From Martensiomyces pterosporus (lineage: Eukaryota; Kickxellomycota; Kickxellomycetes; Kickxellales; Kickxellaceae): DNA of 64,000 nt. The position numbers were made by a program, and so were the translations under genes. The notes below the pieces were generated by a model. It did not search any database. It had not been told where the DNA came from and worked only from the letters and a program-made list of their open reading frames with translations. Shown one piece after another: positions 57,448 through 64,000 of the stretch. Within the stretch, counting starts at the first letter, position 1, and every line of letters starts with the position of its first letter. The stretch covers positions 1 through 64,000 of the forward strand of contig MU603963.1 of NCBI GenBank assembly GCA_025201845.1. Direction: 5' to 3'.

Positions 57448-60400
57448 ATGAGAACAATATCTCTATCCTCGCGGCTGCAGTGGGCATTTCGCGGCACGGT
57501 TCTACCTGGCGCGCTGGCAACAGGCGATGTCGACAACGATGGTGTGAGTATATGCGCGATAGGCAGTCTCCGCATTCTGACGCGTTCAATTGTTGCAAGG
57601 AGCGCTGACAATACGTGCCATGTCTCACTCAGTGCTCCTTTGGAGATTTTCGCTGGATTGTCTACCCTGTAGTGCAAGGAATTTGTCGTTGGCAGCGTCC
57701 AGGGTGAGCTGGCGATTTTTCGTGGGCGCGGTGGCTGCGGCACATGGCGCTATTCAGAGGACCAGATAGAGCCAGAGTTTGACTGCTGGGACGCAGTGGA
57801 TCGCGGCGAGCTACCAGTCGAGAGTGTTGCTGGCGACACGGAAAGCCTGACCCGGCAAAGCACATACACGGGCCATGTTCAGAGCGCCTCGTCTCACCGC
57901 GAGTCTTATTCAGTCGAGGACATATTCCACTTGTTTGGAGGAAGCGACCGAATGCCTGCTTCTCATGCAAATTCGGGAGACACTAGCGAAGACGATGGCG
58001 GTGCTGGTGAAGCAAAGGTGCATAGGCAGGAGGCTGCTTATACTGGCCACATCAAGTGGGAGGACGCGCTGGAGATCGAGCGCGATGGTCGCAAACCTTG
58101 GGTGCTCGCACAAAAGCTCGGCACCATTTCGTCTGTCGTTGTGGCCGATATCTGCAACTGCGGGCATAACTCGGTGGTTGTAGTGAATGGCGAGGGCAAG
58201 TGCCACATATTTGACTACCCCTTCAAGCGGCGCTTCCATCCGGATCTGGCTCAAAGGAAGCGGCAGCGCAGCCACCTCCGCAAGTTCTCACAGGAACGCT
58301 TCTTCAAAGAGGGCCTGGCTGTTCAGCCATATGGCGGGCAGCAGCAGCAAGAGGCGCATGGCGAGCAGTGTGTAGATCAGCCATCATGTGTTCTCCAACG
58401 CCTCGGCACTGTAGACGCTGATGGCCAACTTGCTGGGGCTGAAGCCAAGACAAGTGCTGCCGCTGATTCCCAGCTCGCACCAAACGCAGACGCTGCTGCT
58501 GATGCGAACACGCGAGCGCCTTCCACGCAATCGAACATCCCGCCTGCCGGGTCTCTGGCGGCCATGGCAGACCATGGCGGTGACCCGCACCATCTCCATG
58601 GAACCATGTCGAATCTCGAACCAGCTCTGTCGCCGCACCAAAGCTACACAAGCGCGCTGCCACGGATGGCTGCGAGCACAGCGCAGCTGACATCGCTCGC
58701 TAGCACAATAAGTATCGAGCCCACAAAGTCGCTGGACAGTGAAACTACGAACCCCAATATGATGGCCAGGAGAAGCAACCAGAACAGCAACGTCACATCC
58801 ATTCCGGAAACCATCCCGACCAGCAATGTATCCTCGCAGCTTGATCAGCCGCTGACTATTTTGGACAGACGCGCGTCCAGGGGCAATGCACTGCATGTGT
58901 ACACGGACAACAGCCATTCAATTGGCCAAGGCGAAGCCCCAGTTTCTCCTGCTAATACACGTGCTATGCATGGCAGCGGTGGCGACCAAGGCGAGCTCAG
59001 CATGGGCGAGGGCAATGTGGGCAGAGCCGATCTGTCCGAAATCGCTATTGACTCTCTGAGTGTAGCATACGGCGACACAGATGCAGACACCGACTTGGAC
59101 ATTGACGAAGCGGCCTCTGATTTAGGCGATCGTGCGTTTCTCTCCCGCGAAGAGGTGCGCGATATCGAAAAGATTTGGGGTGCGAATGTTGGAAAGAAGA
59201 GCGGGGACTGGTTCCCGTTTGTGCTTGATCGACCCGATATGACGTTTTCTATCCCAACGAACGTTGAGCACGCTATGGTTGCTGATATCGACAACAACGG
59301 ACTGAACGAGCTGGTGCTAACTGCCACTGATGGCTTTGTGTACATCTTCCGGGTGATGGCATCGGCAAAGCACGCTGTAAAACCCACGCTTGCACCGCTT
59401 GGCATGCTTAGCAACATAACTACAACGCTGCCTAGCGTCAACATGACTGGCAATGGATCACCCTACTTGTACATGTCGGCGCCCAGATCCCCAGACGCCT
59501 CAGATCTAGAGCTAGATAGCAGCACCAAAGGCCCAAAAGCTGCAGACGGCGTGAAAGCAGTCAAGGCTCGAGAAGGTGAGGACCCCGCTCGGACAGCTCC
59601 GCCAGGCGACTCCAACGAGGGAACTACCGAAGCTGCTCTAGAAGCAAAGTCGGATCTAAACTTAGTAAACCACTTGCTCAGATCGATAAAGGACGCATCG
59701 GCGACTCCAGTCGAGCGCAGACCAGAGACGGTGGACCTCGGTGGGTCGCTGGTGTTTCAAGAAGGAGCCGTGGTTGACACCGAGCTAACTGCAAAAGCCA
59801 GCTCGATCGGACCTGCCTTGACTGATGGAAAGTCGCCAATGTCTGACATTTTGCTGTCCGGCACACAGCAGGCACCGCAGCCACAGCAGGCACCGCAGCT
59901 ACAGCAGGCACCAGCTCAGCCGCCAGCTCAGCCGCCTCAGTCGCTAGCGCATTTCACAGCAGCAGCAGCAACAACAGCACCCGTTAAGCGCCGCCAGAGC
60001 ACTGGTAGGAGAATGTCACTGTCGAGTCGCATGCGCGAGAACTTTGGGGGCATATTAGCTGGTTGGGAGAGCGCACGCAAGGGCGTCTTTTCGTACAACC
60101 AGACAGCACCACCCAGCATAAACCACTCGCGCGTCCAGACAGCAGAAAACAGCGGCCATTCCACAAAGACACACTCGCGTATGCCGAGTGTCGGTGACGA
60201 CGCTGTAGACCTCGAGCAAGTGAGTGCAGAGCTGACGAGTGCCGCTGTGGTTGATGACAAGACACGCACGGATTCGAAGTGCACGCCCTCTCACCGCAGC
60301 GCTACCAGCACAGCTGATGGAGCTCTTCAGCAACAGCGCGGCAGGCGCCTGAGCCACAATGTCACCACGCTTGATGCCCTGGAAGAGGTTCCAGAACGGA

Positions 60401-63400: not shown

Positions 63401-64000
63401 AGGACGAGAAGGAGGAAGAGATTGAGGAGGCGCCTCAGCCTATGGAGCTGGATGTCGCCACGTTTTTGGTCGGCGGTGTTTCAGCCGGCAAGAGAAGACG
63501 GCTGATACTCGAGGAGCCGTTTTCCAATGTGCCCCCAGCTGAGAGCGCTGGAGACGAGGATAGCGAGTACGAGATGAATGAGCTGGTGTCGCTTGTGACC
63601 ATGGATGGCGTTATCAGCTGCTACGACCCAGAGCGCAAGATCAACCACTTCGTCAGCCTCAGTTCAAAAGACCCGGTTTTGGGAATTTGGAAGGCCAAGA
63701 TGCACGAGGAAGTGTGCAATCCTTCGCCGCTCGAGACAATGCGTCGTGATGGCGGCGCCGGTTTCGACCTCAAGGTGGGCGATGAGCTTTTGGCTAGCAC
63801 GCCCGCAAAGCGGATATATAGGCGAGTCGGGCTATCTCGCCGCGACCTGTACCACGCTGTGCAATACTCGATCTATGTCGAAGACAACCTGTACATGGTG
63901 GATCGGCTCGAGACCCGCCGCCGCAAGTTGAGCAAGCGCATGGTAAGGAACGTGCGCAGCCGGAATCAGCTGAACTATGCGGCTGCAGCTGGTAGCTCCA
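57448..64000 (+). CDS. ITFG2: Very large ITFG2-like (KICSTOR) protein, 3' end cut by window
   Basis: ITFG2 is a subunit of KICSTOR, which holds GATOR1 on lysosomes and restrains mTORC1 when amino acids are scarce in animals. Exons 57448-57543 and 57673 onward (129-nt intron, GTGAGT/TGTAG); the frame stays open to base 64000, at least 2,141 residues. Residues about 1-45 (MRTISLSSRLQWAFRG...LATGDVDNDGCKEFVVG) match the ITFG2 start; further repeats are at about 177-218 (WVLAQKLGTISSVVVADIC...), 559-597 (VADIDNNGLNELVLTATDGFVYIF) and near 2,000 (NELVSLVTMDGVISCYD). Between the last two lie about 1,400 residues of Ser/Pro/Gly/Gln-rich disorder with an 18-bp imperfect tandem repeat (about 59,868-59,920) and a Cys cluster CSCSSCDC near 61,411. 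Animal ITFG2 is about 450 residues. The stop lies outside the window. Confidence 0.85.

What the first reader, a model, noticed from the sequence alone, without database searches (positions are those of the whole stretch)
57448..64000. A giant ITFG2-type KICSTOR protein in a fungus
The beta-propeller blocks of ITFG2 are recognisable in order, but the region before the last visible block is expanded by about 1,400 disordered residues, making the protein at least five times longer than in animals. KICSTOR is known mainly from animals and is missing from the model yeasts. A fungal KICSTOR with a large regulatory insertion would bear on how nutrient sensing by GATOR/TORC1 evolved; the Ser/Thr/Pro-rich insert could be a phosphorylation platform.
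Basis: partly seen in the sequence, partly recalled or inferred. Interest (0 to 1): 0.75.

Follow-up and report, generated by a model that had tools for sequence, protein, structure and literature searches.

The report
Giant fungal ITFG2 with phosphosite loops
This gene encodes a sixfold-enlarged fungal version of ITFG2, a part of an animal nutrient-sensing brake on cell growth, and its extra floppy loops carry conserved sequence marks that look like targets of a cell-shape and division kinase.

Summary
The gene is an ITFG2 ortholog: exon 57448-57543, 129-nt intron, then one 2,680-codon exon ending at contig position 65715; 2,712 aa against 447 in human. Pfam Itfg2 scores 99.9 bits (cut-off 27). 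KPTN and the three GATOR1 genes were found in the same genome; KICS2 and SZT2 were not, without a positive control. Fungal KICSTOR is already published (Barua et al. 2025). The enlargement is old: the 22 Kickxellales proteins kept as full length have 2,435-3,060 aa (searches admitted about 1,500-4,700) and Furculomyces (Harpellales) 2,604; Mucorales and Conidiobolus have 620-976. New is a conserved set of H-x-R-x-x-S/T sites, the NDR/LATS (Cbk1) kinase consensus, in otherwise diverging loops: 116 in 22 proteins against 19.9 in shuffles; 86 other ORFs of this genome are at chance, and Iml1 (2,769-aa frame) has none. One site lies in an island recognisable in Furculomyces. I propose an NDR-to-KICSTOR input. 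Against it: no Cbk1 docking motif, no site cluster in RNB-domain (Ssd1-type) frames, two of six loop islands not found in Furculomyces. Phosphorylation is untested.

The parts
57448..57543 (+). Exon 1 of the ITFG2 gene (residues 1-32, in the first blade)
   Evidence: identical to P0001
57544..57672 (+). Intron, 129 nt, GTGAGT...TAG
   Evidence: P0001 identical to the spliced model
57673..64000 (+). Exon 2, cut by the window end; runs to contig position 65715 (residues 33-2712)
58090..58227 (+). Blade 2 block (residues 172-217)
   Evidence: hhalign 1-217 to Gilbertella 1-100, E 8.4e-23; Pfam
58228..59223 (+). Loop A, 332 residues against 60 in Gilbertella
59224..59364 (+). Blade 3 block (residues 550-596)
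   Evidence: hhalign E 6.9e-10
59365..61281 (+). Loop B (residues 597-1235), holds four of the five HxRxxS/T sites
61282..61332 (+). Probable propeller strand around ATWFLDNIPGNVSM (residues 1236-1252); assignment inferred
   Evidence: conserved in 22 Kickxellales; only weakly found in Furculomyces (-0.1 bits against at most -0.6 in shuffles)
61912..61959 (+). Probable propeller strand LILSKPGGRFVPID (residues 1446-1461)
61960..63435 (+). Loop C (residues 1462-1953)
63436..63708 (+). Block DVATFLVGG...ELVSLVTMDGVISCYD...DPVLGIWK (residues 1954-2044)
   Evidence: Furculomyces 29.4 bits; weak hhalign match 2004-2021
58273..58290 (+). HxRxxS site 1 (H233)
   Evidence: 22 of 22 keep HxRxxS/T; not in Furculomyces
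60124..60141 (+). HxRxxT site 2 (H850)
   Evidence: 18 of 22
60172..60189 (+). HxRxxS site 3 (H866), island TAPPSI...HSRxxS also recognisable in Furculomyces
   Evidence: 22 of 22; island profile 6.8 bits in P0046 against at most 4.0 in 200 shuffles
60706..60723 (+). HxRxxS site 4 (H1044)
   Evidence: 16 of 22; island not found in Furculomyces
60757..60774 (+). HxRxxS site 5 (H1061)
   Evidence: 22 of 22; island not found in Furculomyces

Best explanation
It is the ITFG2 ortholog (the only one found) of a Kickxellalean fungus: a beta-propeller subunit expected to pair with KPTN and help anchor GATOR1, the GAP that switches Rag GTPases and TORC1 off (pathway role inferred from animals). In the Kickxellomycotina the loops between blade strands grew into long, mostly fast-changing segments. 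They kept islands, among them an array of H-x-R-x-x-S/T sites. Most likely an NDR-family kinase (Cbk1/Orb6 type, with Mob) phosphorylates these sites, perhaps creating 14-3-3 or partner-binding points, so that polarity and division signals tune how KICSTOR holds GATOR1. Shown: gene structure, orthology, age of the enlargement, enrichment and conservation of the sites, presence of an NDR kinase, Mob genes, KPTN and GATOR1. Inferred: that the loops are flexible, that the sites are phosphorylated, by which kinase, and the effect on TORC1. My split: ITFG2 ortholog 0.97; conserved sites functional about 0.75; NDR kinase the user about 0.45.
For: Pfam Itfg2 99.9 bits, cut-off 27; no second PF15907 locus found; the only PDB sequence hits at E<=1 are human ITFG2; the AlphaFold model of Gilbertella ITFG2 (mean pLDDT 52.3) has chains of six KICSTOR entries as its first six Foldseek hits (E 1.6e-24 to 9.9e-24; next, a BBSome subunit, 6.5e-8). 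Giant form in the 22 proteins kept as full length and in Furculomyces. HxRxxS/T 116 in 22 proteins against 19.9+-4.5 in 40 shuffles, HSRxxS/T 77 against 2.4; with 15 other residues at -5, z from -5.0 to 6.9, and 2.9 for arginine. P0001 alone: 6 sites, reached in 1 of 2,000 shuffles; 4 HSRxxS/T, in 0 of 2,000. Background of 86 ORFs: 15 in 51,877 aa, shuffles 13.6; the Iml1 frame 0. The five sites are kept in 22, 18, 22, 16 and 22 of 22, while -2 varies at four of them, unlike an RRxS rule; mean loop identity is 0.33-0.46. Histidines in loop HxRxxS/T sites are more conserved than other loop histidines (4 of 5 against 3 of 41 at 0.7 or more; Fisher p 0.001; cut chosen after seeing the values). 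NDR kinase at C10 (55% and 50% identity), three Mob-family loci. HxRxxS/T is the published NDR/LATS and Cbk1 consensus (PMC4428629 passages, PMC4320110 abstract).
Against: No [YF]xFP Cbk1 docking motif (1 match in 22 proteins), although published likely substrates without it exist. Positive control failed: in four RNB-domain frames of this genome, among which Ssd1 would be expected, there is one lone HxRxxS and no dock (at least two of the frames were cut and none was identified as Ssd1). Furculomyces has only two HxRxxS/T, not beyond chance by count (108 of 2,000 shuffles), lacks the first site, and two of the six loop-island profiles, one of them that of sites 4 and 5, did not beat shuffles there; in the whole-length profile search the TAPPSI island alone scored -1.2 bits. 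The loops hold many other near-invariant columns (a tenth at 0.95 or more), so the sites are not the only thing conserved. Related sequences are not independent, so z-scores overstate. RRxS/T is also enriched (181 against 45.9). KICS2 and SZT2 not found.
Confidence: 0.5

Rival explanations
1. Neutral or lineage-wide loop growth: Kickxellales signalling proteins generally gain long low-complexity segments, and ITFG2 is one of them with no special regulation.
For: Iml1 sits in a 2,769-aa frame; kinase-domain matches lie in frames of 2,930, 3,452 and 4,713 aa; KPTN frame 884 aa, its start not determined; loops diverge fast (identity 0.33-0.46).
Against: Islands in the loops are nearly invariant, including most HSRxxS sites, with many indels around them; the sites are absent from Iml1 and at chance in 86 background ORFs.
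Confidence: 0.25
2. The sites are real phosphosites but for PKA, Sch9 or another AGC kinase (or for 14-3-3 recruitment after such a kinase), linking glucose or nitrogen signals, not the NDR pathway, to KICSTOR.
For: RRxS/T 181 against 45.9 in shuffles, 9 in P0001 (3.32 per 1000 aa against 0.83 in background); site 1 is RRxS in 21 of 22; four short relatives (three Mucorales and the unnamed P0042) carry RRxSD in the same loop.
Against: Histidine at -5 and arginine at -3 are kept while -2 is free at four sites; of the residues tried at -5 only histidine reaches z 21.
Confidence: 0.2
3. Gene-model artefact: two genes or unrecognised introns joined into one frame.
For: No transcript data were available here; one relative, P0010 (3,060 aa), carries a CobW domain in its gene model.
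Against: 2,680 codons without a stop, propeller blocks in order, islands aligned in 22 Kickxellales and partly in Furculomyces.
Confidence: 0.03

Closest known systems
Human ITFG2 in KICSTOR (PDB 9o5a, 9v6e, 25ge)
   Same: Same propeller blocks in the same order where they can be aligned (four stretches; Pfam PF15907).
   Different: 447 aa against 2,712; I did not examine the human sequence for HxRxxS/T (a crustacean ITFG2, P0043, has none).
Mucorales and Conidiobolus ITFG2 (P0038, P0040, P0041, P0044; P0042 from a source without a name)
   Same: Fungal ITFG2 with moderately long loops, in part at the same places.
   Different: 620-976 aa; no HSRxxS array; two of the five have one HLRFST at another place, the other three none.
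Fungal KICSTOR survey, Barua et al. 2025 (PMC11836306)
   Same: Reports KICSTOR homologs, ITFG2 included, across non-Dikarya fungi (abstract, section 9 and passages seen).
   Different: The words 'disordered' and 'insertion' do not occur in its main text; size and phosphosites not treated in what I read; its supplements were not read.
Cbk1 substrates Ssd1 and Ace2 (PMC4428629, passages)
   Same: Phosphorylation at HxRxx[ST] sites.
   Different: They carry a [YF]xFP dock; P0001 does not, and 1 of 22 relatives has a match.

Membership tests
ITFG2 (KICSTOR subunit) | Pfam PF15907 over the curated cut-off | tested here: met
   99.9 bits against 27; exon 2 up to the window end alone 67.5
ITFG2 (KICSTOR subunit) | Best match to ITFG2 rather than another FG-GAP or propeller family | tested here: met
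   Only ITFG2 sequences in PDB at E<=1; FG-GAP, FG-GAP_3 and BBS2_Mid below their cut-offs
ITFG2 (KICSTOR subunit) | Complete propeller with all blade blocks in order | tested here: inconclusive
   Of 12 alternative hhalign matches five are in order, three strong and two weak, the other seven being off-register blade-to-blade; fold shown for Gilbertella P0040 (mean pLDDT 52.3), not for the giant itself; Linderina C-terminal model failed (pLDDT 35.3)
KICSTOR complex | KPTN partner encoded in the same genome | tested here: met
   C13:58595-61246(-) frame; human kaptin in PDB E 1.2e-14 over residues 501-623 of the fragment
KICSTOR complex | SZT2 and KICS2 encoded in the same genome | tested here: inconclusive
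   PF09404 no match, no control rang; recalled N-terminal part of SZT2 no match, uninformative
KICSTOR complex | GATOR1 (IML1, NPR2, NPR3) present to be anchored | tested here: met
KICSTOR complex | Physical assembly and lysosome/vacuole recruitment of GATOR1 | not testable with these tools
   needs an experiment
NDR/LATS (Cbk1) substrate | Conserved HxRxxS/T sites above chance | tested here: met
   within Kickxellales; in Furculomyces one aligned site, count not beyond chance
NDR/LATS (Cbk1) substrate | [YF]xFP docking motif (only of the docking class of substrates) | tested here: not met
   1 match in 22 proteins, none in P0001
NDR/LATS (Cbk1) substrate | Phosphorylation by the kinase | not testable with these tools
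   needs an assay

The most novel reading that the evidence does not exclude
Kickxellomycotina evolved a direct line from the NDR (Hippo-like RAM/MOR) kinase to KICSTOR: ITFG2's loops were enlarged into a multi-site NDR phosphorylation array that tells GATOR1, and so TORC1, about polarised growth or septation.
Probability: 0.35. Interest if true: 0.75.

Novelty: new variant of a known kind. Interest (0 to 1): 0.55.

Why it matters
How KICSTOR itself is regulated is described as largely unclear in a 2025 abstract on KPTN ubiquitination (PMC12904710, seen in the listing). A fungal subphylum that builds conserved NDR-type sites into ITFG2 would give a testable regulatory input from cell-shape and division signalling to TORC1. 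In budding yeast the opposite direction is reported (TORC1 restrains Cbk1, PMC10468069, abstract read), so this could close a loop between growth and morphogenesis. It is also a case of loops growing in a conserved propeller protein while its core sequence is kept.

Tried and rejected
Single insertion: rejected, because sequence matching a propeller strand (1446-1461) lies inside it. Proline-directed phosphorylation platform: rejected, S/T-P is at shuffle level. Earlier reading that SNITTTLPSVNMTGNGSPYLYMSAPRSP (near 610-640) is the human VSQPG strand: dropped, since LILSKPGGRFVPID fits better and is shared with Furculomyces; Pfam itself placed profile positions 68-153 at 59242-59490, which partly disagrees with this. 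RNB/Ssd1 as a positive control for NDR sites: failed (one lone site in four frames, no dock). KPTN frame: two HxRxxS/T, the first possibly upstream of the true start, conservation untested. A composition-based disorder score (TOP-IDP values typed from recall) separated loops from core only modestly (0.14-0.25 against -0.05 to 0.14), so 'disordered' rests mainly on low conservation, indels and composition, not on a dedicated predictor. Restricting the background to high-scoring windows left only one of the six ITFG2 HxRxxS/T sites, so that control was of no use. KICS2 and SZT2 searches without a control say nothing about absence. Of six loop-island profiles tried on Furculomyces, four beat all 200 shuffles (one only narrowly) and two did not. 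The second structure model, a Linderina C-terminal fragment, was useless.

Rows dropped and limits: for the 22-protein counts I used 22 of the 27 proteins, leaving out P0020 and P0021 (partial) and P0025-P0027 (short). P0020, P0021, P0025 and P0026 do carry HSRxxS sites; P0027 has only one HSKxxS. 'Full length' was my judgement from length and labels. The searches admit only proteins of roughly 1,500-4,700 aa, so they could not have found a short Kickxellales ITFG2; (about 350-1,100 aa) found Kickxellales entries of 345-1,083 aa, mostly labelled partial, but P0028 (878) and P0029 (1,083), on contigs of 4.9 and 5.9 kb, are not so labelled and I take them as gene fragments without proof. Searches scored only the candidates sharing most words. 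The alignment leaves out P0010 and adds P0046.
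Full report
What the sequence shows. The gene starts at 57448 with MRTISLSSRLQWAFRGTVLPGALATGDVDNDG. A GTGAGT...TAG intron of 129 nt at 57544-57672 joins this to CKEFVVGSVQGELAIF. After it one frame of 2,680 codons runs to contig position 65715, beyond the window. The 2,712-residue product is identical to the database protein for this locus, P0001. No transcript data were available.

What it is. Pfam Itfg2 PF15907 matches at 99.9 bits against a cut-off of 27. In the PDB the only sequence hits up to E 1 are human ITFG2 of KICSTOR (447 aa). 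No other PF15907 locus was found in the genome (17.4 Mb, 216 contigs). A shorter fungal relative, Gilbertella P0040 (727 aa), was modelled (mean pLDDT 52.3). Foldseek against the PDB puts chains of six KICSTOR entries first (E 1.6e-24 to 9.9e-24; TM-score by target 0.71-0.75); 9o5a_G is ITFG2, and I take chain B of the other five as ITFG2 because those entries hold it though the listing gives only entry titles; the next hit is a BBSome subunit at 6.5e-8. The same genome has KPTN (human kaptin in the PDB at 1.2e-14), IML1, NPR2 and NPR3. KICS2 and SZT2 gave nothing, but neither search had a positive control.

Anatomy. Profile alignment of 22 Kickxellales proteins to six short relatives gives, among 12 alternative matches, five in order: residues 1-217 to 1-100 of P0040 (E 8e-23), 550-596 to 161-207 (7e-10), 2337-2473 to 516-588 (2.5e-13), and two weak ones, 1446-1461 to 270-285 (0.038) and 2004-2021 to 392-409 (0.086). 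The other seven are blade-to-blade matches out of register, as expected for a repeat protein. Residues 1236-1252 (around ATWFLDNIPGNVSM) are probably a further strand; this is inferred.

How old and how common. The first search returned 26 relatives besides P0001, from Coemansia and Kickxella. The 22 proteins kept as full length, P0001 included, span 2,435-3,060 aa. The search admits only about 1,500-4,700 aa; a search for shorter ones found in Kickxellales only entries of 345-1,083 aa, mostly labelled partial. A search with the N-terminal 240 residues added Furculomyces boomerangus, 2,604 aa, of the Harpellales, another class of Kickxellomycotina (taxonomy). Named Mucorales have 727-976 aa, Conidiobolus 620, a crab 622. 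The enlargement is therefore at least as old as the split of Harpellales and Kickxellales, if it arose once. Loops are poorly conserved (mean pairwise identity 0.33-0.46 against 0.73-0.89 for blades), but contain near-invariant islands: a tenth of loop columns are at 0.95 or more.

The sites. H-x-R-x-x-S/T occurs 116 times in the 22 proteins against 19.9+-4.5 in shuffles, HSRxxS/T 77 against 2.4+-1.4; 15 other residues at -5 gave z between -5.0 and 6.9, arginine 2.9. For P0001 alone, 6 sites were reached in 1 of 2,000 shuffles and 4 HSRxxS/T in 0 of 2,000; for Coemansia reversa P0019, 5 sites in 7 of 2,000. In 86 ORFs of at least 250 codons from 20 stretches of this genome and the rest of the window (51,877 aa) there are 15, with 13.6 in shuffles; Iml1, one of them, with a frame of similar length (2,769 aa), has none. 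Five sites of P0001 (H233, H850, H866, H1044, H1061) are kept in 22, 18, 22, 16 and 22 of 22 proteins. At four of the five the -2 residue varies, which argues against a simple RRxS rule. In Furculomyces the stretch FSWAFTAPPSISNSKNSSLSHSRVNSVTD corresponds to FSYNQTAPPSI...HSRMPSVGD of P0001; the island profile scores 6.8 bits there against at most 4.0 in 200 shuffles, though in the whole-length profile search this piece alone reached only -1.2 bits. By count alone Furculomyces is not significant (2 sites, 108 of 2,000 shuffles), and the islands of sites 4-5 and of residues 1690-1730 were not found there. Of the six short relatives, four have no Hx[RK]xxS/T and two have one each, at another place.

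Literature. HxRxx[ST], or Hx[RK]xx[ST], is the Cbk1 phosphorylation consensus and [YF]xFP the docking motif; Dsf2, Mpt5 and Sec3 have conserved sites without a dock (PMC4428629, passages). The -5 histidine is required for NDR and LATS to phosphorylate two Kif23 sites in vitro, one of them a reported 14-3-3 binding site (PMC4320110, abstract). TORC1 promotes phosphorylation of Cbk1 and restrains it in budding yeast (PMC10468069, abstract). KICSTOR in non-Dikarya fungi is published (PMC11836306; abstract, section 9 and passages); its discussion speaks of absent KICSTOR components in Kickxellomycota among others. No paper in the library holds both 'NDR kinase' and 'KICSTOR'; none of the 15 papers listed, of 78 found, holds both ITFG2 and Coemansia.

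Mechanism. The genome has an NDR kinase (55% and 50% identity to recalled human STK38 over its two parts) and three Mob-family loci. I think it most likely that this kinase phosphorylates the loop array and changes KICSTOR's partners. Against it: no docking motif in P0001 and one match in 22 proteins; one lone HxRxxS and no dock in four RNB-domain frames, among which Ssd1 would be expected; and RRxS/T also enriched (181 against 45.9). The main rival is lineage-wide loop growth without function; the conservation of the islands speaks against that for at least part of the loops.

Verdict. A new variant of a known kind: the ITFG2 family and its presence in fungi are known; the sixfold enlargement shared by two classes of Kickxellomycotina and the conserved HxRxxS/T array are, as far as the searches above show, not described.

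Noticed in passing
G000:C53 (L006 486-8792, minus strand): The GATOR1 subunit IML1/DEPDC5 lies in a 2,769-aa open frame, which I recall as about 1,000 residues longer than the human or yeast protein; it has no HxRxxS/T sites.
   Followed up: partly
P0010, Coemansia interrupta: The gene model joins a CobW domain to giant ITFG2 (3,060 aa); perhaps an annotation join with a neighbour.
   Followed up: no
G000:C115, C6, C21: Kinase-domain matches lie in open frames of 4,713, 3,452 and 2,930 aa, suggesting that very long signalling genes with long exons are not rare in this fungus.
   Followed up: no
P0038, P0040, P0041, P0042 (alignment A2): These four ITFG2 proteins keep an RRxSD motif in the loop between blades 2 and 3, where Kickxellales have HxRRFSQ; a basophilic site may be older than the histidine. 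Furculomyces shows neither at that place.
   Followed up: partly
window 55554-56948, minus strand: Neighbouring gene is an ARMT1-like damage-control phosphatase (Pfam PF01937, E 9.9e-72).
   Followed up: no
window 60124-60774 (sites 2-5): In the four loop B sites the residue at -4 is also serine in 22, 22, 19 and 22 of 22 proteins (HSR rather than HxR); no explanation found.
   Followed up: no
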